Positions 15,906-37,795 of a DNA stretch of 64,000 nt are shown one piece after another. A model generated the notes under the pieces. It did not search any database, was not told the origin of the DNA, and saw only the letters and a list, made by a program, of their open reading frames with translations. Source of the DNA: Rhodococcus sp. WMMA185 (GTDB taxonomy: Bacteria > Actinomycetota > Actinomycetes > Mycobacteriales > Mycobacteriaceae). The DNA lies in assembly GCF_001767395.1 (NCBI RefSeq), contig NZ_CP017014.1, positions 1,736,001 through 1,800,000 of the forward strand, given 5' to 3'. Numbering within the stretch: position 1 is the first letter of the stretch; each line of letters opens with the position of its first letter. Both the position numbers and the translations under genes were made by a program.

Positions 15906-15924
15906 ACGAATTTCCTCCTCGCCA

Positions 15925-15938
15925 GTGACCATCGGCCC
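15925..15938 (+). promoter_or_regulatory. DevR/DosR-like box upstream of the nitroreductase
   Basis: GTGAC-CATC-GGCCC, flanked by CCA and TAA, follows the 5-4-5 geometry of the DosR consensus GGGAC-TWWA-GTCCC. It lies 91 bp before the nitroreductase GTG. The M. tuberculosis homologue family (Acg, Rv2032) is DosR-dependent. Confidence 0.6.
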
Positions 15939-16028
15939 TAACCCCGTGCCGACCGAGGGCGAACACTTGAAGCAGCATCGACTTCCCGTATCGAATGGCA
16001 GAGTTCGTGCTTCGACCCGGAGGTGATC

Positions 16029-17018
16029 GTGAACAGCAGCATCCCCGACGAGAACGTAGTTCGCATCGCCGTGGATCTCGCATGCCGGGCACCGTCGGTA
16101 CACAACAGCCAGCCTTGGCGGTGGAGGTACGCCGACGGGCAACTCGACCTGTATGTCGACGGCAGCAGAGTACTGACTTCGGCCGACCCCACGGGTCGGC
16201 AATTGGTCATCAGCTGCGGTGCTGCGCTCAATCATCTCCAGACGGCACTGACCGCGCTCAGATGGTCCACTGACATCCAGCGTGTCCCGGAAGGGCCACG
16301 CTCAGGACACCTGGCCTCGATTCGCTTCCGCCATGACGCTCGACCCCAGTCGCACGATTTCGATCTGCTCGCGGCAATCCGGCACCGCCACTCCGACCGT
16401 CGACCGTTCGGTCCAGTCAGCCCGAAAACCCCGCTGCCCGCTTCCCTGACCGACGTGGTGCACCACTGGCAAGTACACCTAACCGTTCTTGGGCAGGACA
16501 CCCGCCCGACGCTCGCGCAAGCGACAGAGATGACCGCGAACGTACGCAAGTACGATTCCGCATATCAGGCCGAGATCCACTGGTGGACCGGTCATTCTGT
16601 CTCGCAGATCGGCGTGCCGCCGGATGCCCTCGCGGCGGCGGAAAGCCGTGCCGGGGTCGACATCGGGAGGCGCTTTCCCGGCGGCCGAGACGGCGGTACC
16701 GGCACGAAGTTCGATCACTCGACGGTTCTCGTGTTGAGTACCGATACCGATGGTCGCCACGAGTGGCTCCGAGCCGGTGAAGCCCTCTCCGTCGTGCTGC
16801 TGGAATCGACGCTCGCCGGCCTTGCGACGTGTCCGTTGACCCACGTGACGGAACTCGGCCCGGCTCGGGAGATGATTCGTGACCTACTCCCCGACCGCGG
16901 ACTACCACAGGTTCTCATCCGGGTAGGTGTTGCCGAGGCGGCGAGTCCGCCCGGGCACACCCCGAGGCGACCCGTCGAATCGGTGTTCTCAGTGGATAGA
17001 CGACGCTCTGGTCGGTGA
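16029..17018 (+). CDS. Acg-like nitroreductase-family protein
   Basis: This 329-residue nitroreductase-fold protein resembles Acg (Rv2032), a DosR-regulon member thought to bind or sequester flavin rather than reduce nitro compounds. Visible motifs are ACRAPSVHNSQPWRWR near the N-terminus, RQLVISCGAALNHL, RHSDRRPF, and near the end GLATCPLTHVTELGPARE, LPQVLIRVG. The start is GTG 16029, with GGAGG at 16019-16023; a GTG six bases upstream is less well spaced. It converges on the hydrogenase operon, the stop codons being only 7 bp apart. Confidence 0.85.
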   Translation: MNSSIPDENVVRIAVDLACRAPSVHNSQPWRWRYADGQLDLYVDGSRVLTSADPTGRQLVISCGAALNHLQTALTALRWSTDIQRVPEGPRSGHLASIRFRHDARPQSHDFDLLAAIRHRHSDRRPFGPVSPKTPLPASLTDVVHHWQVHLTVLGQDTRPTLAQATEMTANVRKYDSAYQAEIHWWTGHSVSQIGVPPDALAAAESRAGVDIGRRFPGGRDGGTGTKFDHSTVLVLSTDTDGRHEWLRAGEALSVVLLESTLAGLATCPLTHVTELGPAREMIRDLLPDRGLPQVLIRVGVAEAASPPGHTPRRPVESVFSVDRRRSGR

Positions 17019-17025
17019 CAATCGA

Positions 17026-17514
17026 TCAGGAGCGGCCGTCCACGTTCTCCGGTGCCTGCCCGGTTGCCTCGTCGATAGCCGCGAGAACAGCCGAGACCGT
17101 CGATTCGAGGGCCCCGACCACTGCTGGTGAGAGTCCGCGGCCACAGCCCAGATCGGCAACCTCTACCGCGAAGATGATCATTCGGCGTGGCAGACGACCC
17201 AGCGCCTCACCGAGCCGGAGGATGTCGTCGAGTCGGAGTCCGTGCGTGCTGAACAGTCCTTCCTCTGTTTCGACGACCTCCTCCGGGGTGAGCCGGTGCA
17301 TAGTGCCCGGCCGAGGCGGTTCGCGTACGACGGCGTCGACGACGACGGCCAGGTCCGCACTGGTCCAGGTGTCGAGCAGAGCGGCGGGGTCACCCTCGGA
17401 TACCGAGACGCACACGTCCGATGAAACATGTTCCGCCACTTCTCGCGCCACCGACGGTCCGATCCCGTCGTCGCGGCGCAGGTCGTTTCCCAGTCCGATC
17501 ACTACGGTGTTCAT
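17026..17514 (-). CDS. [NiFe] hydrogenase maturation endopeptidase
   Basis: This 162-residue HycI/HyaD-type protease trims the C-terminus of the large subunit after nickel insertion. It has the N-terminal VVIGLGNDLRRDDGIGPSVA (nickel-sensing Asp in RDDG, residues ~15-18), the central VVVDAVV, and the later GLRLDDILRLGEALGRLP with downstream strand IIFAVEVADLGCGRGLSP. The ATG at 17514 overlaps the large-subunit stop (ATGA), so it is the last gene of the hydrogenase operon. A longer upstream reading lies inside hyhL and is rejected. Confidence 0.92.
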   Translation of the reverse strand: MNTVVIGLGNDLRRDDGIGPSVAREVAEHVSSDVCVSVSEGDPAALLDTWTSADLAVVVDAVVREPPRPGTMHRLTPEEVVETEEGLFSTHGLRLDDILRLGEALGRLPRRMIIFAVEVADLGCGRGLSPAVVGALESTVSAVLAAIDEATGQAPENVDGRS

Positions 17515-18803
17515 CGTCGATGGATCTTCAGGGTCAGAAAGTGGGTGGCGCACGAGATGCACGGATCGTAGTTGCGGATGGTGCGTTCGCACAGAGCGGT
17601 CAGTTCGTCATCGGTGAGCGTGAGGTTCTCATCGACTGTGCGACGCAGGTCGTATTCGATCGCGGCCTGATTCTGTGAGGTCGGTGGAATGATGCTCGCG
17701 GCGCTGATAAGTCCCGTGGGATCGAGTTCGTATCGGTGGTACAGCAGTCCACGGGGTGCTTCGCTGACGCCGTGCCCGACGCTGCGTACCGGTGGCCCGG
17801 CGATGAAGGGCTGCATCGGACGGTCGTATCGCTCGATGATGCGCAACGCTTCCTCTACTGCGTAGACGACTTCGACGGCACGGATGATGATGCTGCGGTA
17901 GGGGTTCCGGCACGACCCCTGCAGACCTGCGGCTGTGGCGGTCCGGGCGGCCATGTCTGTCAGTTGCGCCGAGTTGATCGAGTATCGGGCGAGCGGGCCG
18001 GCGAGGTACCTTCGCCCGTCGAGTTCGGCATGGAGCGCAGTCGAGTGCGGCACCTGGTGTTCAGTCACATGGTGTGGGAATTCGTCAGCGGTGCAGCGTA
18101 ATCCGGACGAAGACCAGATCTCACCATCCTCGATGGCGTAGCGGGAGTCGTCGTGGAGCGCGACCAGATCGTGGTCGAGTTCGATGTCGGGGAATTCGAA
18201 GGCCGAGACCCATTCGACCGTCGCCACGGCGTGATCGAGTGCCGTACGTAGTTGGTCGGCCAAGGGACCGAGTTCGGCCCTCGTCGGCGTGCGGTGGAAT
18301 CCACCGATTCGCACATTGACCGGGTGGATCGGCCTCCCTCCGATCAGCTCGAGGATGGCGTTGCCGGCCTTCTTCAACGCCAACCCTCTCTCGACGGCCT
18401 CGCGATCGTGCCGGGCGAGGGCGATCGAATCCGGAACTCCGAAAAAGTCGGGCGCATGGAGGAAGTAGATGTGCAGCACGTGGCTCGCGATCCACTCACC
18501 GCAGTAGAGCAGACGTCGCAGATCCAATACGGAGCGGTCCAATACGAGTTCGCAGGCTTGTTCGACGGCGTTGCACGCACTCACTTGGTAGGCCACGGGG
18601 CAAATTCCGCAGATACGTGAGGTGATGTCCGGGGGTTCGAGAAAATGGCGGCCGCGGAGAAAGGACTCGAAGAAGCGGGGCGGCTCGTAGATGCTGAGTT
18701 CGACGCGTTCCGCACGGCCGTCGTGGACGGTGACATCGACCCGACCCTCGCCCTCGACCCGAGCGAGAGCGCGCACGGTCAGTTCCCTATTCCGGGGCAC
18801 CAT
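17511..18803 (-). CDS. hyhL: [NiFe] hydrogenase large subunit, group 3b type
   Basis: This 430-residue catalytic subunit binds the NiFe(CN)2CO centre. The L1 motif [11 protein letters not shown] provides Cys65 and Cys68; the L2 motif [10 protein letters not shown] is at the C-terminus, followed by only eight residues for the maturation protease to remove. It fits the soluble NADP-linked 3b (sulfhydrogenase/Hyh) group rather than membrane hydrogenases. I chose ATG 18803; a GTG at 18842 would add 13 residues inside the small-subunit gene. The small-subunit stop overlaps this start by 17 bp. Confidence 0.92.
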
Positions 18804-19578
18804 GATGCGCGCCTGTCGGGGAGGAAGGGTAGGCCGCCACATTGAATGTGGCGAAGATTCGGTTGATTGAATCGTCGTTCATTCCACAGGTGCGTAGCCA
18901 CCCGGTCATGGAGGAGAGGTTCGGGTCGGTGGTGGGGCCAAAGCAGCCGTAGCATCCGCGAGAGAGCGACGGGCACACTGCGCCGCACCCGGCGTGTGTG
19001 ACCGGACCGAGGCAGGGTGTGCCTTCGGCGACCATCACACAGGTCAGGCCCCGTCTCTTGCATTCGGTGCACACGCTGGTGTTCGGGATGTTCGGCTTCC
19101 GGCCCGCCAGGTACGCCGTGATGACTTCGAGGAGCTGACGCCGGTCGATCGGACAGCCGCGGAGCTCGAAGTCGACTGGGACGTGCGCGCCGATCGCGGT
19201 CGACGTGGCGAGGGTGTCGATATAGCCGGGGCTCGCATAGACCACCGAAAGGAAGTCGTCGATGTCGGCGAAATTGCGCAGCGCCTGGATGCCGCCGGCG
19301 GTGGCGCAGGCTCCGATCGTGACGAGGAAACGTGATTGTTCGCGCACCGCGCGGATGCGGTCGCGGTCCTCGGCGGTGGTGATCGATCCCTCGACGAGCG
19401 ACAGGTCATACGGGCCTGTAACGACGGTGTCGGACAACTCGAGGAAGTGGGAGATCTCCACTGCTTCGGACAGGGCGAGCAGCTCGTCCTCGCAGTCGAG
19501 CAATGTCAGCTGACAGCCATCGCAGGAGGCGAACTTCCACACGGCGAGTTTGGGTTTGGTGGTTTGTGGTGAACTCAT
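18787..19578 (-). CDS. hyhS: [NiFe] hydrogenase small subunit, group 3b type
   Basis: This 263-residue electron-transfer subunit has [15 protein letters not shown] (proximal cluster Cys pair, residues ~18-22), [19 protein letters not shown] and a C-terminal Cys-rich stretch ([31 protein letters not shown]) for further [FeS] clusters. There is no Tat signal, so the enzyme is cytoplasmic. The ATG at 19578 shares bases with the stop of the flavin subunit (TGATG), a translational coupling. Group 3b is indicated by the four-subunit gene order. Confidence 0.93.
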
Positions 19579-20420
19579 CACAACTCCGGTACCCGTAGGA
19601 GTGGTTGGGCGGTGGCGTAGTCGACGACGGGGCCGTCACGGCAGAGGAGGAGTTCGCCGAGTTGGCAATGCCCGCAGGTACCCGTCCCGCACTGCATGTT
19701 GCGTTCCAGCGACACTTGGATGTTCTCGGCCCCTACACCGCGATCGATCAGTGAGCTAGCGCTGAACCGCATCATCGGTTCGGGCCCGCACAGCAGTGCG
19801 GTGGTACATGCGGGGTCGATGGCCACGCGGTGCAATGATTCGGTGACGAAACCGACGGGTCCGGTCCACCTGGAGACCGGCTGGTCGATCGTCACTTCGA
19901 CTGCGATGGCGTCGGAGACTTGCCACGCGGCCAGTTCGCCCCGATACAGGATGTTCGAGGGGTCACGCGCACCGACGATGAGCGTGACCCGTCGGAATCG
20001 TTGTCGTGAAGCGAGCGCTGCCACCACCACGGGTCGCAGCGGGGCCAGGCCCAATCCCCCGGCAACGATCAGCAGGTCGGCACCCCGATCCACATCCAGA
20101 TTCCAGCCGTGGCCGAAGGGTCCGCGAACCCCGAGGATCGTCCCGACCGAAGCGTCGTGAATGGCCTTGCTCACCGCCCCCACACTGCGGACGGTGTGGG
20201 AAAGCCCGGAGTGGATCCCTTCAGGGTGTCCACTGATCGAGACCGCGATCTCGCCTACACCGTGGGCATACAGCATCATGAACTGGCCCGGAGCGACCCG
20301 CTGCTCGGGGACCGTGGTCGTCGGCTCGAGGATCAAGGTGGCGGTGTCGTGAGTCTCCGCCACACGGGACACCACCCGGTAGCCGGTCGGGGTCGCGCGG
20401 TCGTTCTGCATGCCGATCAC
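19578..20420 (-). CDS. Hydrogenase FAD/NAD(P)-binding gamma subunit
   Basis: This 280-residue diaphorase subunit is of the ferredoxin-NADP reductase/DHOD electron-transfer type and links the hydrogenase to NAD(P)H. The FAD-binding region is [13 protein letters not shown] with the ISGHPEG segment. The NAD(P) region begins [17 protein letters not shown] near 117. The C-terminus carries a [2Fe-2S] site, [22 protein letters not shown]. Its ATG at 20420 overlaps the preceding gene stop by 4 bp. The four-subunit set matches NADP-reducing 3b hydrogenases. Confidence 0.92.
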
Positions 20421-20881
20421 TCACTCCTCCCACCGCTCGCATAGAGATCGAGCAGTCGGGCCCGCGTGGACTGCAAGCGGGCGATCAGCACGCCGGACAA
20501 CGCCCGCGTGACCGCGTAGGCGAAGCCCGGCTCGTCATCCACCATCCGCTCGAGTTCGACGATGTCGAGTTCCGCCGCGTCGGTGTCCGACGTTGCCGTC
20601 GCTGTGAACTGCCAGACCCCATGTGGGTTCAGCCAGGACCAGCCGAGGACGTCGCCGCCGTGCAGCGTTTCGAGCGTGACCGCGCCCTTGCCGGGGATCA
20701 CCGTGGTCAGGTCTACACTGCCGGTACCGAGCAGCCAGCATCGCATCGCAGCCTGGTTCTCCCGGAAGATGGATTGACCGGCGGCGAACCGCACGGGCGT
20801 GGTGAGTTCGGCGAGTCTGCTCCGATGTTCGCGCTCCAGTCCCGGCAGCGACGAGAACGCGGCGGGCACGTCGCTGTTCAT
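20417..20881 (-). CDS. Cyclic-nucleotide-binding-like protein of the hydrogenase operon
   Basis: This 154-residue single-domain protein has the cNMP-binding/Crp beta-roll: FAAGQSIFRENQAAMRCWLLGTGSVDL, then LETLHGGDVLGWSWLNPHG. There is no DNA-binding domain, so it is not a transcription factor. Similar genes occur inside actinobacterial group 3b hydrogenase operons, where an allosteric or assembly role is likely but unproven. I chose ATG 20881 because GCGAGGATCC precedes it; an ATG at 20902 is too close to GGAGG. It overlaps the iron-sulfur subunit gene slightly upstream of its stop. Confidence 0.8.
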   Translation of the reverse strand: MNSDVPAAFSSLPGLEREHRSRLAELTTPVRFAAGQSIFRENQAAMRCWLLGTGSVDLTTVIPGKGAVTLETLHGGDVLGWSWLNPHGVWQFTATATSDTDAAELDIVELERMVDDEPGFAYAVTRALSGVLIARLQSTRARLLDLYASGGRSE

Positions 20882-20894
20882 GGATCCTCGCTGT

Positions 20895-22061
20895 TCATGC
20901 ATCCTCCGGGGTCTCGGCCGGAAGCACCTGTGAAAGACGAGCCGCCTCCTCGGTGATATCGATGCCGACTGGGCACCAGTCGATGCATCGTCCGCACCCG
21001 ACGCACCCGGAGCTGCCGAACTGGTCGAACCAGGTGCCGAGCTTGTGCGACATCCACTGCCGATATCGGCTCTCCCCCGAGACCCGGACGTCCCCACCGT
21101 GCAGGTGGCTGAAGTCGAGTTCGAAGCACGACGACCAGTGCTGCCACCGCTCGGCGTGGTCCCCCGTCAGATCGGTGATGTCCTCGCTAGTGGTGCAGAA
21201 GCAGGTGGGGCACACCATCGTGCAGTTACCGCAGGTGAGGCACCGCGCGGCGACGTCCTCCCAGACGTCGGCCTCCCGCGCCGAGCGCAGTAGCAGCCGC
21301 AGATCCACCTCCGGCATCGTGCGTCCCATCCGATCGGCCGCAGACGTCACCGCGGTGCGGGCGTCGTCGACTTCTCCGACGGCCGCCGGACGGCGAGCGA
21401 CGTCGTCGAGGACCGAGGCTCCTTCGTCGGTGCCGATGTCGACGAGGAAGCGGTGGCCGTGCTCGTCGATGCGCTCGGTCAGTGCGAGGTCGTAGCCGGA
21501 CCCGGCGGCGGGCCCCGTCCCCATCGATGCGCAGAAGCAGACCTCACCGGGCTCGGTGCAGTGAGCGGCGACGAGGAACAGATGCTGGAACCTTCGGGCG
21601 GTCGGGCTGTCGGCGCTCGGATCCGGGCACAGAACCCGACGCAGCACAGCGATTGCCGCGAGGTCGCAGCCGCGGACCCCGACGAAGGCGTAGGGTCGCT
21701 CGTCCTGTGCCGGTGCCTCGTAGGTGCCGTTCCGGTCGACGGACCACAACTGCTGCCGCGGTGGATGAAGGAACCGCTTCCACGATTGCGGTCCAGCAGA
21801 GTGGCCGAAAACCGCGGCATCGTCTCGTCGCCGCAACCGATAGATTCCGGGTCCGGTCGTCACACCCCAGCCGGAGGGCAACTGAGCGCCGGATTCGAGT
21901 TCGTCCAGAACGATCGCCGAGTCGTGAACAGTTGGCCCGACGACACGATAGCCACGGGCGCGCAAGGCATCGATCAGCTGGTCGAGGCCGTGACGATCCA
22001 GCATGCTGTGACGGTCCACGCGCACGCTCCTCCCCGACCGGTCCGCTTCGGTCATCTCCAT
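20895..22061 (-). CDS. Hydrogenase iron-sulfur beta subunit (HyhB-like)
   Basis: This 388-residue protein carries two ferredoxin-like 4Fe-4S motifs in its C-terminal half, CLTCGNCTMVCPTC (about residue 275) and CVGCGRCIDWCPVG (about 356). Its N-terminal domain has the VGVRGCDLAAIAVL and CFCASMGTGP segments of sulfhydrogenase/anaerobic sulfite reductase A subunits. It passes electrons between the flavin subunit and the NiFe module. First gene of the leftward hydrogenase operon, with a DosR-like box 29 bp upstream. Confidence 0.92.
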   Translation of the reverse strand: MEMTEADRSGRSVRVDRHSMLDRHGLDQLIDALRARGYRVVGPTVHDSAIVLDELESGAQLPSGWGVTTGPGIYRLRRRDDAAVFGHSAGPQSWKRFLHPPRQQLWSVDRNGTYEAPAQDERPYAFVGVRGCDLAAIAVLRRVLCPDPSADSPTARRFQHLFLVAAHCTEPGEVCFCASMGTGPAAGSGYDLALTERIDEHGHRFLVDIGTDEGASVLDDVARRPAAVGEVDDARTAVTSAADRMGRTMPEVDLRLLLRSAREADVWEDVAARCLTCGNCTMVCPTCFCTTSEDITDLTGDHAERWQHWSSCFELDFSHLHGGDVRVSGESRYRQWMSHKLGTWFDQFGSSGCVGCGRCIDWCPVGIDITEEAARLSQVLPAETPEDA

Positions 22062-22089
22062 TGAGCCAGGCCCAGCATTCTCAAAACCA

Positions 22090-22103
22090 GGGCCGTTCGG
22101 CCT
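22090..22103 (-). promoter_or_regulatory. DevR/DosR-like box upstream of the hydrogenase operon
   Basis: GGGCC-GTTC-GGCCT (+ strand) follows the 5-4-5 DosR-box geometry. It lies 29 bp before the first hydrogenase gene. The homologous M. smegmatis Hyd3 operon is known to be DosR-dependent. Confidence 0.55.
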
Positions 22104-22125
22104 TTCCTCGGGCGCAGTCGGACCG

Positions 22126-22398
22126 CTATCCGGTCAGATGAACGCGGCTGTGGGTAGCTGCTTCCAGATCGGATGCTGTGGCCTCGACCAACTGGTGGGA
22201 TAGGTCGGCCAGAGCCCGGGCCGTGGCCAGTTCGTCCCCGATTTCGGGGATTTCGGGGTCATCCGGATTTCGGCGAGCCAGCCCGACCCCGACGAGTGTC
22301 CGGGTGTCGCTGGTGCGGAGCCGGGCCTGAGCTCGGGTCCTGGAGTCGTCTTCGTTTTCGTCGATGACGACGTCCACCGACCATTTCTTCTCGTTCAT
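22126..22398 (-). CDS. DUF1876 (Rv1738-like) dormancy protein
   Basis: This 90-residue cytoplasmic protein matches the Rv1738/Rv2632c family by its pattern WSVDVVIDENEDDSRTRAQA, then TLVGVGLARRNPDDPEIPEIGDELATARALADL. Rv1738 is one of the most strongly DosR-induced genes in M. tuberculosis and resembles ribosome hibernation factors in fold. ATG 22398 has GGAG about 9 nt upstream. It lies between the hydrogenase and WS/DGAT genes on the same strand, 36 bp after the WS/DGAT stop, so it may be co-transcribed with that gene. Confidence 0.9.
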   Translation of the reverse strand: MNEKKWSVDVVIDENEDDSRTRAQARLRTSDTRTLVGVGLARRNPDDPEIPEIGDELATARALADLSHQLVEATASDLEAATHSRVHLTG

Positions 22399-22434
22399 CT
22401 CGATCGTCTCCGTTCGGTGTGGTGTGGACGCCGA

Positions 22435-23944: not shown

Positions 23945-24841
23945 CTAACTCGCCCGGCGGCAGATCATCAGTGGGCGTGTGAGGTGATGGAGAAGGTTCT
24001 GGCTCGTCGATCCCAGGAGAGCTCCGACGAGTCGACCGTGGCCGTGGCTACCGACGACGACGAGTTGCGCGTCGTGGGAGTATTGGCGGATCAGTTCGGC
24101 TGGGTTGGATCGTTCGATGATGGTTGTTACTCGTAGATCCGGGTACGTCTCCTTCCAGCCGGCGAGGCTCTCCGCCATCAGCACGGATTGCTCGTCCTCG
24201 ACGACGGCCGAGTTTCCCGTTGTCGAGGGGGTGTGATGTCGCGACGTATGCCCGGGACCCCAGCCGTGGACGGCGAGGATTGGGACATCGAAGGTCGTCG
24301 CGAACTCCACCGCTGCGGAAATCGCCAGTGAGCTCAGCTCACTTCCATCGACCCCGACAACGACGGGACGATGGTCGGGTACCGGAGAAGGGGCGTCCGA
24401 ACTGAACACGGTGACGGGACACTGTGCATGGTTGACCACTCGCATGACCGTGGAACCGATGCCACGGGATTCCGCTGCCCCCGCACCGGTGGCTCCGACC
24501 ACCACCATGAATGCTTGCCGACTCAATCCCGTGAGGGCCATGCCGGCGGGCCCCGGATGGGTACTGCTGAGCACGGTGACTTCGGGAAACTCGCTCTTCA
24601 CGGCCAGTGCGGCCCGATCCAGGATCTCGTGGGCGGTTCGCTCGGCGTCTTCGTTGAATTCGGCTTGAAAGAGCGGTGCGGCCTCGCTGTAGTGGTACCA
24701 CGAGGTGGGCAGGCTGTGGGCCAGCTGCAGCGTCACAGACTTCCGATCTGCGATCGCAGCCGCCCACACCATCGCTCGTGTCGCTTCTTCTGAACCGTCG
24801 ACACCGACGACGATTGGCGGGCGTCGAGCGGCAGCATTCAT
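23945..24841 (-). CDS. Tandem-domain universal stress protein 1
   Basis: This 298-residue protein has two USP domains (residues ~8-145 and ~158-296). Each starts with the V(V)VGVDGS strand-loop, and each ends with an ATP-binding GATGAG...GST or GSHGHG...GST loop. Double USPs of this kind (Rv1996, Rv2005c, Rv2623) are DosR-regulon members in M. tuberculosis and bind ATP to slow growth. ATG 24841 with AAGGA 4 nt upstream. It lies between the two WS/DGAT genes on the same strand. Confidence 0.93.
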   Translation of the reverse strand: MNAAARRPPIVVGVDGSEEATRAMVWAAAIADRKSVTLQLAHSLPTSWYHYSEAAPLFQAEFNEDAERTAHEILDRAALAVKSEFPEVTVLSSTHPGPAGMALTGLSRQAFMVVVGATGAGAAESRGIGSTVMRVVNHAQCPVTVFSSDAPSPVPDHRPVVVGVDGSELSSLAISAAVEFATTFDVPILAVHGWGPGHTSRHHTPSTTGNSAVVEDEQSVLMAESLAGWKETYPDLRVTTIIERSNPAELIRQYSHDAQLVVVGSHGHGRLVGALLGSTSQNLLHHLTRPLMICRRAS

Positions 24842-24984
24842 TCCTTATCACCCCCGATACTCGGGTATGCAGGTGCGTTCGGCCGGGTGTACCGGATTGA
24901 GCGGAACAATTTCACTCTCTCAGAGGAAGTACCAACAGCGATAGAGGCAGAGGTCATCTGGCTGTATGCATCCTTCGACGGTGC

Positions 24985-26415
24985 CTATGACGCGGGCTTA
25001 CCCTGCTGGGCCCGCAACGCGGCTTCGGTCTCGACGCGACGCGCGGCGGAGAGGAGGTTCGCGGCGGCACGTTCGATCGCGTCTGCGAAATCGGTGATGT
25101 CCGGTGTCGTGTCGAAATCCCCTGTGATGCCGAAGCTCACGTTGTCACGGTAGCTCAGAATTGCGATACCGATACGGAGCCGTAGCGCGATCGGCACGCA
25201 GGGATTGATCTCGAGAATCTCGCGTCCCATGACATGAAGGATGCGCTTCGGTCCGGGAACGTTGGTAGCGATGGTCACCACACTGTGCTGCGGCAGCCGG
25301 GTGGCGAGACGGACGGCCCAGGCAATCGCCATGAAGGGGCCGTATTGCGCAAGCGTCGTGAATGCGTGCCCACCCTCGGATTCCTTGCCCGCCTTGTGAG
25401 TTGCGAGACGGCGATGCACCGTCATGAGTTGCTGGACGTTGTCGGCGACATCGACGGGTAGATAGGGCAGCATGAGCGACATCTCGTTGTGGGTCGTGCC
25501 GCCCCCGCGTGCCGGGCGCACCGACACGGGGACCAGGGTCCGGACGGTGTGAGGTCTCGGCCGTTCGCCGCGCTTCAACAGAATGTGGCGAAATCCGCTG
25601 GTGATAGCAGCGAGTGCCACGTCATTTACGGTGACGCCGTACGCATCGCAGATCTCGCGGGTCTCGGACATGCTTATGCGTGCGGCACGGTACCGGCGCT
25701 GCTTTCCGATCGGACCGATCAGGGACGTCGGACTCGCCGGCGTGAATATCTCGGAAACCAATCGGGCGAATCCTCGGGCGGTGTCCAGCCCCTTGACTGC
25801 GACGCGGCGCGGCACCTCGAACGCGGCGGCGACCAAATCCAATTGTTCTGAGGGCGAGGACAACACGGCGCGAGTGCGTGAGAGACGTCCGCGGGACTCT
25901 TGTTCGGCGTGCGGCGCCCCGGTGTCTACGCTGTCGCTAGTCGCCTCGTCGCAGAGGGCTTCGAAGAGTCGTGCGCCGGCGATACCGTCTGCCATACAGT
26001 GATGCATCTTCGCCAGGACTGCCCATCTGTCGTTGGCGAGACCTTCGATCACCCAGCACTCCCATAGTGGGCGGTCACGGTCGAGGCGATGCCCCATCAC
26101 CCGTCCCACGAAACCGAACAGCGCGTCGGCCTCGCCAGGATGTGGCAGCGCTACCCGGCGGATGTGGTGACCGATGTCGAACAGGGGATCGTCCTCCCAG
26201 GTCGGCGAGCCGAGATCAAGGGGTAGGGTGCGCACTCGCTGTCGCGCGTGCGGCAGCATCGACAGACGCTGCGCGACAGATTCGAGGAACTCGATCTGGT
26301 TCGGAGGCGGACCAGCGATGATTGCGATCGCCCCGATCGTCAGACTCGCGTGCGGGTCGGAATCCTCCGCTTCGAGGAAGCCTGCATCCAGCGGGGTCAA
26401 GTTGTCGTCGGCCAT
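24985..26415 (-). CDS. Wax ester synthase/diacylglycerol acyltransferase (WS/DGAT) 2
   Basis: This 476-residue protein is a second member of the family, diverged from WS/DGAT 1. The catalytic HHCMADG sits at the same residues, 138-144, after RDRPLWECWVIEGL. PGPKRILHVMGREI and a GITGDFDTTPDI segment near the C-terminus are typical. Having two WS/DGATs next to USPs and DevRS suggests storage-lipid synthesis during hypoxia. ATG 26415 has GGGAGG 12 nt upstream. No good DosR-like box is seen. Confidence 0.92.
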   Translation of the reverse strand: MADDNLTPLDAGFLEAEDSDPHASLTIGAIAIIAGPPPNQIEFLESVAQRLSMLPHARQRVRTLPLDLGSPTWEDDPLFDIGHHIRRVALPHPGEADALFGFVGRVMGHRLDRDRPLWECWVIEGLANDRWAVLAKMHHCMADGIAGARLFEALCDEATSDSVDTGAPHAEQESRGRLSRTRAVLSSPSEQLDLVAAAFEVPRRVAVKGLDTARGFARLVSEIFTPASPTSLIGPIGKQRRYRAARISMSETREICDAYGVTVNDVALAAITSGFRHILLKRGERPRPHTVRTLVPVSVRPARGGGTTHNEMSLMLPYLPVDVADNVQQLMTVHRRLATHKAGKESEGGHAFTTLAQYGPFMAIAWAVRLATRLPQHSVVTIATNVPGPKRILHVMGREILEINPCVPIALRLRIGIAILSYRDNVSFGITGDFDTTPDITDFADAIERAAANLLSAARRVETEAALRAQQGKPAS

Positions 26416-26468: not shown

Positions 26469-27077
26469 TCAGCCGACCGGCCATTCTGGTGTCCGGCCGA
26501 AATCGTTCCACTCTCGATCCCACTGCCGCATCCGGCTTCGTGTACTCATCCAGCGAAGCCCGAAGAACAGCAGGACGAAGACCACCGCCGCGCCCACCCA
26601 GACCGACACTGCCGAACCCACGGCAATCGCCGCGTTCTCGGCGGTCGGCCTGGGCTCGTCGGTCATGTTGCCGTTCATGTCGACCCATACATCGACGGTG
26701 TCGCCGCGCTGCGCGCCGGGCCTGGTTTGCACTACGGCGGTGCGCAGTGTGCCGTCCCGGGCGGACCACTGCGCCGTCGCGCGGTCCAGTACTTCCGGAA
26801 AGCGGCTGGTAGCGCTCTCGACCACCGACGGCCGGGGGTCGTCGATGAGTGTGGCGGATTCGGTGTGTCCGGCCCTGAGTTGGGCTTGGGATTGTTCGTT
26901 CAGGCCCGCGTACGTCGCGGTTCCGAACGCCGCTGCGATCGGGACCATCATCAGGAGTGCGATGATCATTACCGCCGCGGCGACGAAATCGAGTCGATCG
27001 CTGGCACGCATGAGTGGATTTCGATTCCACGGCGCCAATCGCCACCAGCGCACTGTCGGTGTCTGGGCTGTGTTCAT
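26469..27077 (-). CDS. Rv1733c-like two-helix membrane protein
   Basis: This 202-residue protein has two membrane segments (VAAAVMIIALLMMVPIAAAF, near residue 33; AVSVWVGAAVVFVLLFFGLR, near 155) enclosing an extracytoplasmic domain with GDTVDVWVDMNGN. This is the pattern of mycobacterial Rv1733c, a DosR-induced conserved membrane antigen. The N-terminus RWWRLAPWNRNPLMRASDR is also typical. Start ATG 27077 follows GGGGGAGG. A longer reading from 27182 would place the DosR-like box inside the gene. Confidence 0.85.
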   Translation of the reverse strand: MNTAQTPTVRWWRLAPWNRNPLMRASDRLDFVAAAVMIIALLMMVPIAAAFGTATYAGLNEQSQAQLRAGHTESATLIDDPRPSVVESATSRFPEVLDRATAQWSARDGTLRTAVVQTRPGAQRGDTVDVWVDMNGNMTDEPRPTAENAAIAVGSAVSVWVGAAVVFVLLFFGLRWMSTRSRMRQWDREWNDFGRTPEWPVG

Positions 27078-27141
27078 CACGCGCCTCCCCCGGGACCATC
27101 CTCGTGTGTTCAAGTCTTTCGCGCTCGAGTCACACGGTGTA

Positions 27142-27155
27142 GGGCAGAAGGTCAT
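27142..27155 (-). promoter_or_regulatory. DevR/DosR-like box upstream of the Rv1733c-like gene
   Basis: On the minus strand ATGAC-CTTC-TGCCC, followed by TAC, matches the box before the nitroreductase (GTGAC-CATC-GGCCC). It lies 65 bp before the start at 27077. Confidence 0.5.
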
Positions 27156-27162
27156 TAGCTCG

Positions 27163-27290: not shown

Positions 27291-27322
27291 TTACTCGTCC
27301 CGATTCTTACTCGTCCCGATCT
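27291..27322. repeat. 16-bp tandem duplication at the hsp20 stop codon
   Basis: TTACTCGTCCCGAT begins two consecutive 16-bp units (27291-27306, 27307-27322), the second covering the last codons and stop of hsp20. The duplicated unit repeats the stop codon out of frame, indicating slippage. Confidence 0.8.
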
Positions 27323-27792
27323 GCATCGGTCCTTTCATCCGCTTCCGTCGCGGGGGCTTGTTGGATCTCGATGTGCTTTTCCGCTGTCTGAGATTCGGAG
27401 ACAGGCATCGACACCGTCAGAATTCCACCCTCATAGCTGGCCTCGATCTCATCGTCCGTCGCGCCTGCCGGCAGCGGGACCGAACGGTAGAAGCTTCCGT
27501 ATCGAAATTCCGACCGAGCATCCTGGCTCTCTTCTGTGCGTTCGGCCTTGATGGTCAGTTGTCCGTCGCGGACGCTGACGTCGATGTCTTTGGCAGGGTC
27601 CACGCCGGGTAGTTCGGCGCGCAGTGTGTAGCGCCCGTCAGCGATTTGTTCCTCGACGTGAATCATGTGACGCCCGAGTGACATCCACGGAGGTGTCGCC
27701 TCGAATCGGGGCAGCAGGTCCGGCCAGTCGGGCAGAGCCGGCAGGTTCGAGAACCAGGACTGGTGCGGGCGGCGGGGCGAAAGAGTGCTCAT
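27307..27792 (-). CDS. Hsp20/alpha-crystallin small heat shock protein
   Basis: This 161-residue chaperone has a central alpha-crystallin domain (about residues 45-135): RYTLRAELPGVDPAKDIDVS, GQLTIKAERTEE, FRYGSFYRSVPLPAGAT and the closing GGILTVSMPV motif. It holds denatured proteins and corresponds to the DosR-regulated HspX/Hsp20 class. The start is ATG 27792 with GGAG 6 nt upstream; an extension to 27852 is rejected. It is divergent from devR, with a good DosR-like box 68 bp upstream. Confidence 0.93.
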   Translation of the reverse strand: MSTLSPRRPHQSWFSNLPALPDWPDLLPRFEATPPWMSLGRHMIHVEEQIADGRYTLRAELPGVDPAKDIDVSVRDGQLTIKAERTEESQDARSEFRYGSFYRSVPLPAGATDDEIEASYEGGILTVSMPVSESQTAEKHIEIQQAPATEADERTDADRDE

Positions 27793-28734: not shown

Positions 28735-30543
<1,809 letters not shown>

Positions 30544-30576
30544 CCAGACCGAGTCACCCAAGACACCGCCGTGGTG

Positions 30577-30590
30577 AGGACCTTGTCCCC
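30577..30590 (+). promoter_or_regulatory. DevR/DosR-like box upstream of USP 2
   Basis: AGGAC-CTTG-TCCCC follows the same 5-4-5 layout as the other boxes and closely resembles ATGAC-CTTC-TGCCC at 27142-27155. It lies 70 bp before the USP start codon. Confidence 0.5.
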
Positions 30591-30659
30591 TACAGTGCGC
30601 ACGTCGTGGCTGTGACGATGGTGAATACAGAAGCCGCGCATATCCTCGAGGAGAATACA

Positions 30660-31541
30660 ATGACCGCTCGTCGCCCGATTCTCGTGGGAACAGACGGTTC
30701 CCCATCGTCGGTTCAGGCAGTCGCTTGGGCTGCGTACGAAGCTGCGCTGCGGAGTTGTCCCTTATCGGTGATCACGACCAACTTCGTTCCTGGTAACTAC
30801 GGTGTCCCCATCGGTATGCCGGCGAGCTTCTTCGAAGACGAAGAACGCGACGCGAAGAACCGCCTCGAGGCTGCGGCCCAGCTCGCGGCTGAAAGCGCAC
30901 CCGGACACACCTTGGACATTCAGACCACTCTCTGCACAGGCACCCCGGCCGGTGAACTCCTCGAACGATCGAAATCCGCATCGATGGTGGTCGTCGGTGC
31001 GAACAGGCGTGGGATCATCGAGCGAGGGTTCCTCGGGTCGGTCAGTGCCGCAGTGGGCACCCACGCGCAGTGTCCGGTAGCAATCATTCGCGCCAATCCC
31101 GAAACCGAGATCACCCGTACTGAGGGCCCGGTTGTCGTCGGGGTGGATGGATCAGCTCACAGTGAAGCCGCCATTTCGATGGCCTTCGAGGAGGCTGCGC
31201 TGCGGCGGTGTGAACTGGTCGCAGTTCACGCATGGTCCGACGTCAAGCTCCCCAGGGGAAGCGATAGCGATGGCGAGTCCAAGGTGCAGCAGGTTGTCAC
31301 CCAGGAAACTGCCGTGTTGTCGGCCAGCCTCGCCGGCCGTGCCGAGAGCTTTCCGGACGTGAAGGTTCGGACGAAGGTCGTGAGGGACGACCCGGTGCAA
31401 AACCTGCGTGAGCAAGCCGATAGTGCCCGACTGCTCGTGGTGGGTAGTCGCGGACGTGGAGGGTTCGCCAGCATGCTGCTGGGATCCACGAGTCGGGCTC
31501 TGATGCACTCGGTCCGCTGTCCACTCCTCATCGTTCGGTAG
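30660..31541 (+). CDS. Tandem-domain universal stress protein 2
   Basis: This 293-residue protein has two USP domains, opening with ILVGTDGSPSS and VVVGVDGSAHS. ATP-loop motifs are VVVGANRRGIIERGFLGSVS and VVGSRGRGGFASMLLGSTS. It is closest in layout to Rv2005c, which in M. tuberculosis lies beside Rv2004c, as here. ATG 30660 has GAGGAG 7 nt upstream; a much longer in-frame reading from 30510 overlaps devS and is rejected. A DosR-like box lies 70 bp upstream. Confidence 0.92.
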   Translation: MTARRPILVGTDGSPSSVQAVAWAAYEAALRSCPLSVITTNFVPGNYGVPIGMPASFFEDEERDAKNRLEAAAQLAAESAPGHTLDIQTTLCTGTPAGELLERSKSASMVVVGANRRGIIERGFLGSVSAAVGTHAQCPVAIIRANPETEITRTEGPVVVGVDGSAHSEAAISMAFEEAALRRCELVAVHAWSDVKLPRGSDSDGESKVQQVVTQETAVLSASLAGRAESFPDVKVRTKVVRDDPVQNLREQADSARLLVVGSRGRGGFASMLLGSTSRALMHSVRCPLLIVR

Positions 31542-31671
31542 CTTCTTGCAGGTTGCACGGTCACGAGAACGTTGGTGATGCAGACCGAGGCGTATCGTTG
31601 AACACCACCCGCGGACCGGCTTCCGACCGAGCAGTTCGATACCACGGACCCGACGCTGCGGACCGCGGTCG

Positions 31672-31685
31672 ATGACGAAAGGCCC
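31672..31685 (+). promoter_or_regulatory. DevR/DosR-like box upstream of the leader ORF
   Basis: ATGAC-GAAA-GGCCC repeats the half-sites of the nitroreductase box (GTGAC...GGCCC). It lies 67 bp before the 39-codon ORF at 31752 and 197 bp before the Rv2004c-like ATG. This puts the small ORF at the usual distance from a box. Confidence 0.55.
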
Positions 31686-31751
31686 TGATACATTTGGCAA
31701 CAACCTCGCTTGGATGAATTCCGGCAGCAGACTACTGGCAGGTGATGGCGC

Positions 31752-31871
31752 ATGAAAGCAACTCTGGACTCCGCCGACGAAGACGACCTGCAGACCCTGC
31801 AGACTCTGTATGAGCGGGTGGAACGTCACGAACGCCATCCGTCGACGATCCACTCGGCTGCCATCGCGTGA
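31752..31871 (+). CDS. Candidate 39-residue leader peptide
   Basis: A short acidic, helix-prone ORF (MKATLDSADEDD..., LQTLYERVERHERH, ending AAIA) runs from ATG 31752 to TGA 31871. It is preceded by AGGTGATGG and ends 10 bp before the well-supported ATG of the next gene at 31882. No family recognised. Its position right behind a DosR-like box suggests it is transcribed and could couple translation of the following gene. It could also be chance. Confidence 0.4.
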   Translation: MKATLDSADEDDLQTLQTLYERVERHERHPSTIHSAAIA

Positions 31872-31881
31872 CGGAGTCCTC

Positions 31882-33393
31882 ATGCAGATCTCCGACAGGT
31901 CGCAAAGGTCTTCGTCGCCGCGCGTCGCCGGCGATCTCGGCGTGAACGGAACCGAGACGCACACGGCCTATGTCTTTATGGTCGGTGATGTCGTCTTCAA
32001 GGCCAAGAAGCCGATCAGGACGGCGTTCGTCGACTTCGGTACCGCAGAGAAGCGGCGCGAGGCATGTGAGCGCGAAGTAGCTTTGAACCAGAGGCTGTGC
32101 CCCGATGTGTATCTCGGAGTGGCGCAGCTCATCGACCCCGGCGGGGTTGAGGCGGAGCCACTGGTCAAGATGCGCCGGATGCCGGCGGATCGCAGGTTGG
32201 CCCTGTTGGTCACGAAGGACAGCGACTCTCACCCGTTCCTGGATACAATCGCGGAGCTCGTCGCCCACTTCCATGCGCGAGCCGAGCGGAGTGCGGAGAT
32301 CGACCGGGACGCAACGGCGGATGCGATCACCGTGCGGTGGGGGGCCAACGTTTCCGAGGTGTCGGGCTACCAATGTGATGTGCTGTCCGAGGTGGAGATC
32401 GACGAGGTCGACCGACGGGCCCGGAGATACCTGAGAGGGCGGAAGGATCTGTTCGACAACCGGATCCGGGAAAGCCGTGTCGTCGATGGGCATGGCGATC
32501 TTCTGGCGGACGACATCTTCTGTCTCCCGGACGGGCCGCGCGTTCTCGACTGTCTCGACTTCGACGAGCACCTGCGCCACGTCGACGGTGTCGACGACGC
32601 AGCATGCTTGGCCATGGATCTCGAGTACCTCGGGCGCGAAGACCTCGCGTCGCGGTTCCTCGATCGCTACTGCCTCGAGGCTGCTGACCAGCCACCCGAT
32701 TCTCTGCGCCATCACTACATCGCGTACCGGGCGTTCGTGCGCGCGAAAGTGGCATGTCTGAGATACATGCAGGGTTCTCTTGCCGCCAGCGAAGACGCCC
32801 GGTTGCATTGCCGACTGGCCTTGCGACATCTGAGAGTCGGCACTGTTCGACTGGCTTTGGTCGGAGGGCTGCCCGGCACGGGAAAGTCGACGCTCGCGCG
32901 CGGATTGTCCGAACGTACCGGCGCGGTCGTCATATCCAGCGATCGCGTCCGTAAGGAACTCGCAGGACTCGATGCGAGTTCCCGTCAGGTTTCCGAATTC
33001 GGCGAGGGTTTGTACACCGGCACCATGACCGACCGCACCTATGCCGAGATGCTGCGGAGGGCGGCTACCCACCTCGCCGCCGGGCAGTCGGTCATCCTGG
33101 ATGCATCGTGGACCCTGTCGGGTTTCCGACAGCATGCGGATCTCGTTGCTAGCCGAAGCCACAGTGATCTCGTCGAACTTCGGTGCACAGCGCCACGCGA
33201 TGTCGCTATCGGGAGGATACGGAATCGACCACTCGGCGACTCGGACGCGACACCCGCGGTGTACGACGCCATGTCCGCGCAGGCTGCCCCTTGGACATCG
33301 GCCACAGAGGTCGACACCGCCGCGGCCCCCGAGGAAAGCCTCGCGGCGGCCGAGCGGATATGGCATTCGACATCGGAGTGGCGAAAGGACTAG
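31882..33393 (+). CDS. Rv2004c-like bifunctional phosphotransferase/AAA ATPase
   Basis: This 503-residue protein has an N-terminal aminoglycoside-phosphotransferase-like domain (about residues 20-320, DGHGDLLADDIFCL as a variant of the HGDLHxxN loop) and a C-terminal P-loop kinase domain (GLPGTGKSTLARGLSERTGA, then the late RNRPLGDSDAT). This matches Rv2004c, a DosR-regulon protein of unknown substrate. ATG 31882 has CGGAG 6 nt upstream. Its location between a USP and PfkB parallels the mycobacterial arrangement. A longer start at 31810 would overlap the leader ORF. Confidence 0.88.
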   Translation: MQISDRSQRSSSPRVAGDLGVNGTETHTAYVFMVGDVVFKAKKPIRTAFVDFGTAEKRREACEREVALNQRLCPDVYLGVAQLIDPGGVEAEPLVKMRRMPADRRLALLVTKDSDSHPFLDTIAELVAHFHARAERSAEIDRDATADAITVRWGANVSEVSGYQCDVLSEVEIDEVDRRARRYLRGRKDLFDNRIRESRVVDGHGDLLADDIFCLPDGPRVLDCLDFDEHLRHVDGVDDAACLAMDLEYLGREDLASRFLDRYCLEAADQPPDSLRHHYIAYRAFVRAKVACLRYMQGSLAASEDARLHCRLALRHLRVGTVRLALVGGLPGTGKSTLARGLSERTGAVVISSDRVRKELAGLDASSRQVSEFGEGLYTGTMTDRTYAEMLRRAATHLAAGQSVILDASWTLSGFRQHADLVASRSHSDLVELRCTAPRDVAIGRIRNRPLGDSDATPAVYDAMSAQAAPWTSATEVDTAAAPEESLAAAERIWHSTSEWRKD

Positions 33394-33443
33394 GAAAAAC
33401 AGCCGTGGTTGCGAGGCGGTTTACCCGAGAAGAGAAGGCGCGG

Positions 33444-36758: not shown

Positions 36759-36820
36759 GTGGTTCCCTCGTCACTACTGTCCAGACAACGAGGTTCCCTC
36801 GTCGTTACTGTCCAGACAAC
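36759..36820. repeat. Tandem 31-bp duplication in the PEP-synthase leader
   Basis: Two adjacent 31-bp units (36759-36789 and 36790-36820) differ at only three positions. On the minus strand each contains GGACAGTA and GACGAGGGAACC, so the ribosome-binding site GAGGGA is present twice, the proximal copy directly before the ATG. Confidence 0.9.
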
Positions 36821-37126
36821 ACCGGCGCGTCCGGGACGCACAGAGTCAAAAGTCACCGCCCTTCGGTCGCTCGACGTAGCGGATCGGAGGCCTGCCCAGC
36901 CGTCGGGAAGCCGGCAGCATTGCCGGTGCCGTCTAGATTCTGTAGCAGAAATGTTCTGAGGCACAGCTAATTCCGAACATGTGAGGACAGCAGAAGGTTC
37001 CCGAGCCGTGAGATGCGTGGCGGGTGGATGCCTTCCGGCTCCAGCGCCCCCGATGATCGCGTCACCGAGGTATCCAGGCTTTCCCTGAAGCACTCTTCGA
37101 GTCACCGCACGAACAATTCCGGGATG
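36821..37126. other. Intergenic region between divergent PEP-synthase and CBS genes
   Basis: No gene is seen. A small hairpin (CCGGCA-GCAT-TGCCGG, 36911-36926) lies in the likely 5' leader of the PEP-synthase gene. No DosR-like box with good half-sites is evident on the PEP-synthase side. Confidence 0.5.
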
Positions 37127-37129
37127 TGA

Positions 37130-37143
37130 GGGTCCTAGGACCC
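37130..37143 (+). promoter_or_regulatory. DevR/DosR-like box upstream of the CBS-BON gene
   Basis: GGGTC-CTAG-GACCC is a perfect palindrome, extended by A/T to 16 bp, with the 5-4-5 DosR geometry. It lies 52 bp before the CBS-BON start. Confidence 0.55.
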
Positions 37144-37195
37144 TTTCATACCTGCAACGTCGCGCCGATGCTGGTATGTGAGAAGAGGAGTCGTC

Positions 37196-37795
37196 ATGCA
37201 CGCACGACATGTGATGAGCAGTCCGGTCACGACAGTAGATCGATCGGCTTCGGTCGATGACTGCCTGCGGTTGGTCAGTAGGTCGCACTTCACGGTTCTT
37301 CCGGTCGTCGACGAGAGGACCCATCTCGTGGGCATCGTGACCGAAGGAGATCTCCTCAGAGCACGATTTCACGACCTGCACGGAACTGGCGGTGGCATCG
37401 ACAAAGCGGGTTCGAAGCACGAAGGGTTGACTGTGGCCGATGTCATGACCAGTCCGGTCGTCGCGATGACGGCCGACGCGGAGGTCAGTGAGCTTGCGTC
37501 GGCCATGCTGCGATCGCGCCTGCGAGGGATACCCATCGTGGACAAGCACGACATCATCGGGATCGTCACTCGTCCGGATCTCATCGCCGTCCTCACAGCG
37601 GACGACGCTCGGATTGCGAAGGAGGCTCAACATCGACTCGACGTGTACGGCGGTGCCGGTCGGTGGCGAGTGGAGGTAGCTGACGGTTCCGCCCTGATTC
37701 ACGGAGTCACGACCGGCGACCCGGAACGAGATGTCATCGCCGCACTGGCCGAAACCGTGCCGGGCGTCGGCGAGGTTCACTTCCCATCCGATTGA
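37196..37795 (+). CDS. CBS-pair protein with BON domain
   Basis: This 199-residue protein has two CBS repeats (VMSSPVTTVDRSASVDDCLR and VMTSPVVAMTADAEVSELAS) ending in GIVTEGDL and GIVTRPDL, so they may bind adenine nucleotides. The C-terminal ~60 residues (DGSALIHGVTTGDPERDVIAAL...PGVGEV) resemble a BON domain. CBS proteins such as Hrp1 (Rv2626c) are strongly DosR-induced. The ATG at 37196 follows GAGGAG by 6 nt and is preferred to the ATG at 37178. A palindromic DosR-like box lies 52 bp upstream. Confidence 0.9.
   Translation: MHARHVMSSPVTTVDRSASVDDCLRLVSRSHFTVLPVVDERTHLVGIVTEGDLLRARFHDLHGTGGGIDKAGSKHEGLTVADVMTSPVVAMTADAEVSELASAMLRSRLRGIPIVDKHDIIGIVTRPDLIAVLTADDARIAKEAQHRLDVYGGAGRWRVEVADGSALIHGVTTGDPERDVIAALAETVPGVGEVHFPSD

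What the first reader, a model, noticed from the sequence alone, without database searches (positions are those of the whole stretch)
15922..37795. A compact DosR-type dormancy island with a candidate box set
Within 22 kb lie devRS and homologues of many DosR-regulon families (Acg, 3b hydrogenase, DUF1876, WS/DGAT, tandem USPs, Rv1733c, Hsp20, Rv2004c, PfkB, CBS). Seven 14-bp elements (15925, 22090, 27142, 27860, 30577, 31672, 37130) share RKGNC-N4-KNCCY and lie 29-91 bp before genes. In M. tuberculosis the regulon is scattered over several loci, so clustering here suggests an integrated unit.
Basis: partly seen in the sequence, partly recalled or inferred. Interest (0 to 1): 0.75.

Follow-up and report, generated by a model that had tools for sequence, protein, structure and literature searches.

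The report
Rhodococcus low-oxygen dormancy gene island
About twenty genes of kinds that related bacteria switch on when oxygen runs low sit together here around their oxygen-sensing switch, nine gene fronts carry the switch's likely DNA landing site, and the arrangement is a Rhodococcus version of clusters already known in Mycobacterium smegmatis and Streptomyces.

Summary
The island (about 15,920-37,830) encodes DevR, DevS and the listed families, plus PEP synthase, a hydrogenase protease and a cNMP-domain protein. But a palindromic matrix trained on other species' loci finds all seven sites and two more (23,911; 36,841). Trained without Rhodococcus, it gives 9 island hits of 11 bits or more, all in 4.0 kb of upstream space, against 5 in 148 kb of upstream space sampled elsewhere in the genome. 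Several boxes are conserved in congeners. The regulon is not confined to the island: a second devRS and a P-type ATPase elsewhere carry boxes. Clustering is not unusual: M. smegmatis msmeg_3926-3955 and the S. coelicolor osdR region are known parallels, and boxes were predicted in R. equi. Verdict: new member of a known kind. Least expected part: a 154-residue cNMP-domain protein inside the hydrogenase operon, in 12 of 12 full Rhodococcus operons examined and 0 of 4 mycobacterial ones; some relatives lie beside devR-like or USP genes instead. Hypoxic induction is untested.

The parts
15923..15940 (.). DevR box CAGTGACCATCGGCCCTA before acg
   Evidence: 16.4 bits; box of 14.0 bits or more before acg in 9 of 9 congeneric loci
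16029..17018 (+). Acg family FMN-binding oxidoreductase (ORF from 16,023)
   Evidence: NF047509 320 bits
17026..17592 (-). Hydrogenase maturation protease HycI-type
   Evidence: TIGR00072 113 bits, PF01750
17511..18842 (-). HyhL, [NiFe] hydrogenase large subunit, RICGIC and DPCISCATH motifs intact
18787..19581 (-). HyhS, hydrogenase small subunit
   Evidence: PF01058
19578..20420 (-). HyhG, NAD(P)-binding/Fe-S subunit
   Evidence: PF00175, PF10418
20417..20881 (-). Single cNMP-binding-domain protein, 154 aa, no other domain found, between hyhG and hyhB
   Evidence: PF00027; alignment A1
20895..22061 (-). HyhB, 4Fe-4S subunit
   Evidence: PF17179
22088..22105 (.). DevR box 26 bp before hyhB
   Evidence: 14.2 bits; box before hyhB in 9 of 11 operons that could be judged, own included
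22126..22398 (-). DUF1876 / Rv2632c-like
   Evidence: PF08962 111 bits
22435..23850 (-). WS/DGAT acyltransferase 1
   Evidence: PF03007, PF06974
23911..23928 (.).
   Evidence: 12.1 bits; no box within 250 bp in 4 of 4 congeneric loci
23945..24841 (-). Tandem universal stress protein 1
   Evidence: PF00582 143 bits, two stretches
24985..26415 (-). WS/DGAT acyltransferase 2
   Evidence: TIGR02946 398 bits
26469..27080 (-). Rv1733c family membrane protein
   Evidence: NF050032 169 bits; 61-65% identical in four congeneric islands
27140..27157 (.). DevR box 59-62 bp before the Rv1733c-family gene
   Evidence: 13.0 bits; near-identical box 50-57 bp before the gene in 3 of 4 congeneric islands
27307..27792 (-). 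Hsp20 (ORF from 27,852)
   Evidence: PF00011
27858..27875 (.). DevR box between divergent hsp20 (65 bp) and devR (211 bp)
   Evidence: 12.4 bits
28087..28734 (+). DevR/DosR response regulator
   Evidence: M. tuberculosis DevR 3c3w E 5e-97; D54, T82, K104 and helix KTVKNYVS conserved
28783..30543 (+). DevS/DosT-type GAF-GAF haem sensor kinase (ORF from TTG)
   Evidence: 2vzw E 7.5e-69, 2y8h E 2.5e-58; H154 aligns with the chains' histidine (haem role recalled), HisKA_3 H400
30575..30592 (.). DevR box 67 bp before usp2
   Evidence: 11.8 bits; near-identical box 69-74 bp before usp2 in 4 of 5 congeneric loci
30660..31541 (+). Tandem universal stress protein 2
   Evidence: PF00582 175 bits
31670..31687 (.). 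DevR box 122 bp before the Rv2004c-type gene
   Evidence: 14.9 bits; none within 250 bp in 2 of 2 congeneric loci
31810..33393 (+). AAA_33 (Rv2004c-type) kinase-like protein
   Evidence: PF13671
33447..34430 (+). PfkB-family kinase (ORF from 33,183; start inferred)
   Evidence: PF00294 182 bits
34386..36758 (-).
   Evidence: PRK06464 768 bits; PF01326
36841..36858 (.).
   Evidence: 14.2 bits; related box 51 bp before the gene in G008, the one congeneric locus listed
37128..37145 (.). DevR box 50 bp before the CBS gene
   Evidence: 15.2 bits; box 50 bp before the gene in G005 and G026, the two congeneric loci listed
37196..37795 (+). CBS-CBS protein with weak BON (ORF from 37,178)
   Evidence: PF00571; PF04972 below its cut-off

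Best explanation
A DevR/DosR-controlled low-oxygen island of a Rhodococcus species. DevS, through its haem GAF domain, senses loss of O2 (or NO/CO) and phosphorylates DevR at D54; DevR-P binds 18-bp palindromic boxes 26-122 bp upstream of nine likely transcription units (acg; hyhB-cNMP-hyhG-hyhS-hyhL-hycI; WS/DGAT1-DUF1876; the Rv1733c-family gene; hsp20, with devRS on the other side of the box; usp2; the Rv2004c-type gene with pfkB; PEP synthase; CBS) and switches them on together. The products would re-oxidise NAD(P)H by H2 evolution, store carbon and reductant as wax ester/TAG, redirect PEP and sugar-phosphate flux and protect proteins. Shown here: gene identities, conserved signalling residues, box enrichment and partial conservation, hydrogenase-devS linkage. 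Inferred: signal, binding, induction, operon limits, direction of the hydrogenase reaction.
For: DevR matches M. tuberculosis DevR over 212 residues (E 5e-97) with D8/D9/D54/T82/K104 and the recognition helix kept. DevS GAF-A best matches DosT and DevS GAF-A chains. A matrix trained without Rhodococcus: 9 island hits >=11 bits, all in upstream space (4,042 bp: non-coding plus the first 120 nt of called genes), against 5 in 148,194 bp of sampled upstream space; Poisson P 4e-14. Mycobacteriaceae-only matrix: 9 island sites >=12 bits, 0.16 expected. Acg box in 9 of 9 congeneric loci; hyhB box in 9 of 11 operons. HyhL is found in 12 of 28 genomes of the genus (own included); in 11 of the 12 it lies within about 25 kb of a DevS homologue (G026's HyhL is a fragment), the twelfth being on a short contig with island genes. 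HypD exists elsewhere in the genome. The homologous M. smegmatis cluster is hypoxia-induced (PMC2799521).
Against: No expression or binding data. Box positions are not uniformly conserved: within 250 bp of the start no box was found before WS/DGAT1 (0 of 4 loci), the Rv2004c-type gene (0 of 2) or devR (0 of 9), and before DUF1876 in 1 of 8, although one search shows boxes further upstream; before hyhB it is missing in G005 and G006C1. usp1 has no box of 9 bits or more here (8.1 bits at 24,942) though 3 of 3 congeneric loci have one. Nocardia-only and 'other' matrices give weaker contrast.
Confidence: 0.87

Rival explanations
1. The island's genes respond mainly to the second DevRS (3.006-3.009 Mb), or to both regulators through the same boxes; the island DevRS is a redundant or modulating copy.
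For: Second DevR is 61% identical and has the same recognition-helix sequence [11 protein letters not shown]; a box of 11.6 bits lies 77 bp before its own gene. DevS homologues at 41-47% identity occur in congeners without the island type.
Against: The island devRS lies inside the box set; island-type DevS with acg and its box is kept together in 9 congeneric loci.
Confidence: 0.3
2. A gene-neighbourhood accident: stress genes gathered by chance, with boxes that are chance palindromes in GC-rich DNA.
Against: Matrix hits are about 66-fold denser in island upstream space than in sampled upstream space; several boxes conserved in congeners; hydrogenase near a DevS homologue in 11 of 12 genomes of the genus with the hydrogenase.
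Confidence: 0.03
3. The island is a recently transferred accessory module rather than an inherited one.
For: Island-type DevS (best hit 77% or more) is in 9 of 28 genomes of the genus, own included. Copies lie near contig ends or on smaller contigs in some (G005 about 38-66 kb from the start of a 7.8 Mb contig; G006 copies on 113 and 346 kb contigs).
Against: No tRNA in the window, no integrase among the ORFs scanned, GC like its surroundings. By an rpoB-region comparison (antisense frame) the genome is as near to the island-bearing species as to G007, which lacks the island type; this fits inheritance with loss as well as transfer.
Confidence: 0.2

Closest known systems
M. smegmatis msmeg_3926-3955 hypoxia cluster (PMC2799521; passages seen)
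   Same: 31 genes near devRS with hydrogenase 3 (msmeg_3927-3931 incl. an M52 peptidase), PEP synthase and Dos-regulon homologues; a second devRS cluster elsewhere in the genome.
   Different: Here the hydrogenase operon has an extra cNMP-domain gene, absent from the four mycobacterial hyh operons examined (M. smegmatis itself was not among them); the boxed P-type ATPase found here lies outside the island (1.11 Mb).
S. coelicolor OsdR/OsdK region SCO0167-0219 (PMC5069765; RESULTS part 1 of 3 and section 12 read)
   Same: DevR-like regulator, palindromic boxes AGGGCCGATCGGCCCT, USPs, nitroreductase, pyruvate phosphate dikinase, a Crp-like protein, clustered.
   Different: It has nitrate reductase; no hydrogenase appears in the parts read.
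DosR/DevR regulon of M. tuberculosis
   Different: Scattered there (reader and recall), clustered here.
Putative DosR boxes in R. equi 103S (PMC2947987; one sentence and the legend of Table S6 seen)
   Same: Same genus name; box consensus NNNGGGHCNWWNGNCCCBNN; DosR homologues reported.
   Different: Most boxes here deviate from that strict consensus; the organisation in R. equi was not seen.
HoxI-type cNMP subunit in hydrogenase clusters (C. necator SH, PMC3702609; group 3b in 'M. acidophilus' 29, PMC12319191; passages seen)
   Same: Small cNMP-domain protein encoded with a soluble [NiFe] hydrogenase; HoxI is called the NADPH activation site in C. necator.
   Different: No BLASTP alignment with the C. 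necator gene taken as hoxI by its place in the hox operon, and hhalign probability 3.5%.

Membership tests
DevR/DosR regulon | DevR orthologue with D54 and base-contact residues | tested here: met
   3c3w E 5e-97; D54, T82, K104, K180/K183/N184 (one-residue offset; roles recalled)
DevR/DosR regulon | DevS/DosT-type GAF-haem sensor kinase | tested here: met
   2vzw, 2y8h alignments with the histidine in HHPPM aligned; haem binding itself not tested
DevR/DosR regulon | Palindromic DevR boxes upstream of member genes, above background | tested here: met
   9 upstream sites in 4.0 kb against 5 in 148 kb of sampled upstream space
DevR/DosR regulon | Strict published consensus GGGHCNWWNGNCCC | tested here: not met
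   One island site only; no genome-wide enrichment. The wider matrix is met instead.
DevR/DosR regulon | Induction by hypoxia/NO that needs DevR | not testable with these tools
   No expression data
Group 3b [NiFe] hydrogenase | HyhBGSL subunit set with nickel-ligand motifs | tested here: met
   no formal hydrogenase classifier was run, and NCBIfam equivalog cut-offs were not reached (best NF040828, 258 bits of 700)
Group 3b [NiFe] hydrogenase | Maturation machinery in the genome | tested here: met
   HycI beside it; HypD at 3,334,004; other Hyp proteins not searched
HoxI | Sequence relatedness to C. necator HoxI | tested here: not met
   the two share only the cNMP domain type
Integrative mobile element | Integrase and tRNA attachment site at the island edge | tested here: inconclusive
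   0 tRNAs in the window; no integrase among the ORFs scanned between 12.4 and 44 kb; not every ORF was scanned

The most novel reading that the evidence does not exclude
The HTH-less cNMP-domain protein is a shared effector of DosR-type dormancy islands: a subunit or redox/nucleotide gate of the HyhBGSL hydrogenase where the hydrogenase is present, and a free regulator in OsdR-type islands that lack it. It would link a nucleotide signal to hypoxic H2 metabolism, and mycobacterial hyh operons would have lost it.
Probability: 0.25. Interest if true: 0.55.

Novelty: new member of a known kind. Interest (0 to 1): 0.38.

Why it matters
It gives a compact model, in Rhodococcus, of the dormancy programme studied in tuberculosis, with nine defined box sites, and shows that this hydrogenase lies near a devS homologue in 11 of the 12 genomes of the genus that have it. 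It also singles out a small cNMP-domain protein in the hydrogenase operon that can be tested directly.

Tried and rejected
GGGACN4GTCCC with mismatches: uninformative (2,856 genome hits at up to 2 mismatches, control 2,805; 389 in the window at up to 3, fewer than shuffles). Published consensus genome-wide: no enrichment. In one search, 40 scrambled palindromic seeds were tried as controls and the 8 best by mean score printed: 2 of them matched the known seed (117 and 119 sequences >12 bits against 117; their start seeds resemble the box, the converged matrices were not printed), the other 6 printed reached at most 69. The all-80 matrix includes ten Rhodococcus loci, two of them R. opacus island relatives, so the no-Rhodococcus matrix is the fairer one.

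ORF 17,015-17,617 (+), taken at first as a gene: rejected for HycI on the other strand. ORF 36,755-37,828 (-): no domain, overlaps the CBS gene, judged spurious. HoxI homology of the cNMP protein: not supported. Rfam and tRNA scans of the window: nothing.

Own mistakes found on checking: the Rv1733c query 26,469-27,099 used and the cNMP query were out of frame; they are replaced. The printed G021 hyhB row is a slicing artefact (stretch not covered) and is not counted. One search used the antisense frame of rpoB because the locus was not reoriented (one search confirms rpoB on the other strand); it serves only as a rough DNA-similarity ranking.

Paper searches for a Rhodococcus island: 'Rhodococcus'+'DosR' (15 of 53 listed), 'Rhodococcus'+DevR+hypoxia and others (7 listed), 'Rhodococcus jostii' (12 of 54 listed), 'dormancy regulon' (10 of 299 listed), 'group 3b'+DosR (none). 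No description of a clustered Rhodococcus DosR island or of the hydrogenase link was seen in the listed rows; this does not show that none exists. PMC3388012 (passages) covers R. jostii RHA1 and the DosR motif in mycobacteria; 12 of 19 places were shown.
Full report
WHERE. The window is bases 1,736,001-1,800,000 of a single-contig 4.44 Mb genome.

GENES. DevR matches M. tuberculosis DevR (3c3w) over 212 residues, E 5e-97; D54, T82, K104 and the recognition helix are kept. DevS matches DosT (2vzw) and DevS (2y8h and others) GAF-A domains and DevS/DosT kinase domains; the histidine that aligns with the haem ligand (role recalled) is present. HyhL keeps RICGIC and DPCISCATH.

BOXES. The literal pattern does not exceed chance. 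I therefore trained a palindromic 18-column matrix, seeded with the published DevR/OsdR form, on 255 upstream regions of regulon-type genes in 80 loci of other species. All seven reader sites score 11.8-16.4 bits; 23,911 (12.1) and 36,841 (14.2) are new. At >=12 bits: 8 in the 21.9-kb island, 1 in the other 42 kb of the window (47,817, inside the NRPS gene), 10 in 680 kb from 34 other places of the genome. By training set, at >=12 bits, island and background: without Rhodococcus 7 and 9; Mycobacteriaceae only 9 and 5; Nocardia only 5 and 15; others 4 and 13. With the no-Rhodococcus matrix at >=11 bits all 9 island sites fall in 4,042 bp of upstream space (non-coding plus the first 120 nt of called genes), against 5 in 148,194 bp of such space in the background, where 10 more hits are elsewhere. 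Six further 20-kb stretches (L098-L103), picked for USPs, near-consensus hits or as neighbours of these, were kept out of the background. The background holds at least one site that looks real (the ATPase below).

CONSERVATION. In nine congeneric loci (eight genomes) with island-type devRS, acg has a box of 14.0 bits or more in 9 of 9, sometimes identical. usp2 has a near-identical box in G005, G006C1, G008 and G026 (4 of 5 loci listed); CBS at exactly 50 bp in 2 of 2; PEP synthase in 1 of 1. The Rv1733c-family gene has a near-identical box in 3 of the 4 loci with 61-65% identity. hyhB has a box of 12.9 bits or more, 43-77 bp upstream (26 bp in the window), in 9 of 11 operons that could be judged: own, G003, G006C8, G008, G010, G013, G015, G016, G023; not in G005 or G006C1; G021 is not covered and G026's operon is truncated. 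Within 250 bp no box was found before WS/DGAT1 (0 of 4), the Rv2004c-type gene (0 of 2) and devR (0 of 9); usp1 has a box in 3 of 3 congeneric loci but only 8.1 bits here.

LINKAGE. HyhL is found in 12 of 28 genomes of the genus, own included (in G026 as a fragment). In 11 of the 12 it lies about 9-25 kb from a DevS homologue; the twelfth (G016, about 1,040 contigs) has it on a 21-kb contig with acg, DUF1876, WS/DGAT and boxes. Island-type DevS is in 9 of 28.

NOT SELF-CONTAINED. A second devRS lies at 3,006,398-3,008,673 with USP genes and a box 77 bp before its devR. Its recognition helix reads the same. A P-type cation ATPase gene at about 1.112 Mb has a 16.7-bit box 62 bp upstream; the M. 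smegmatis clusters contain such an ATPase.

cNMP PROTEIN. It is present in 12 of 12 full hyh operons examined in the genus (11 genomes, own included) and absent between hyhG and hyhB in four mycobacterial operons. In 396 genomes sampled from the phylum, 34 have relatives at E <= 1e-15. Of 29 loci fetched besides the own one, 16 are in hyhB-cNMP-hyhG-hyhS operons. Of the other 13, five have DevR, DevS or USP homologues within about 1.5 kb (L213, L214, L216, L218, L227); four of these five lie in one unnamed family of large genomes, whose size suggests Streptomyces (not tested). Four of the 13 (L213, L214, L218, L227) have a DevR-like site of 10.8-13.6 bits 51-90 bp upstream, 9 have none at 9.5 bits or more, and no background rate was measured in those genomes. 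OsdR's predicted targets include two 'Crp-like' genes, SCO0168 and SCO0517; whether they belong to this family was not tested. A HoxI in a group 3b cluster is already in print (PMC12319191 passages), so a cNMP protein with this hydrogenase is not new; the tie to DosR-type islands is the open part.

CONCLUSION. A real DevR-boxed island, well supported by sequence, of a kind already described in Mycobacterium and Streptomyces. Which of the two DevRs acts on it, and what the cNMP protein does, are the questions left.

Noticed in passing
window 20417-20881 (-); loci L212-L240: HTH-less cNMP-domain protein inside the hyh operon; relatives occur in hyh operons (16 of 29 loci) and, in five of the other 13, beside devR-, devS- or USP-like genes.
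   Followed up: partly
L099 11356-13688 (genome 3,006,356-3,008,688): Second devRS system with USPs, a fatty acid desaturase and a luciferase-like monooxygenase gene nearby, and boxes of 11.6, 12.3 and 15.4 bits.
   Followed up: partly
L185 11644-14350 (genome about 1,111,644): 16.7-bit DevR-type box 62 bp before an 875-residue P-type cation ATPase gene, outside the island.
   Followed up: partly
L194 160-1263 (genome about 2,901,263): 12.7-bit box 63 bp before a putative esterase gene; also a match to the published consensus.
   Followed up: partly
window 44080-63933 (-): A 6,617-residue non-ribosomal peptide synthetase ORF with condensation, adenylation, carrier and a final thioesterase domain; a LuxR-type NB-ARC regulator gene lies nearby at 40,823-43,144.
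   Followed up: partly
G006 contigs C1 and C8; G008 contigs C12 and C72: Two island-type devRS copies in one genome; in some congeners (G005, G011) the island type lies close to a contig end.
   Followed up: no
window 47817-47834: A 13.3-bit box-like site inside the NRPS coding sequence, probably chance.
   Followed up: no
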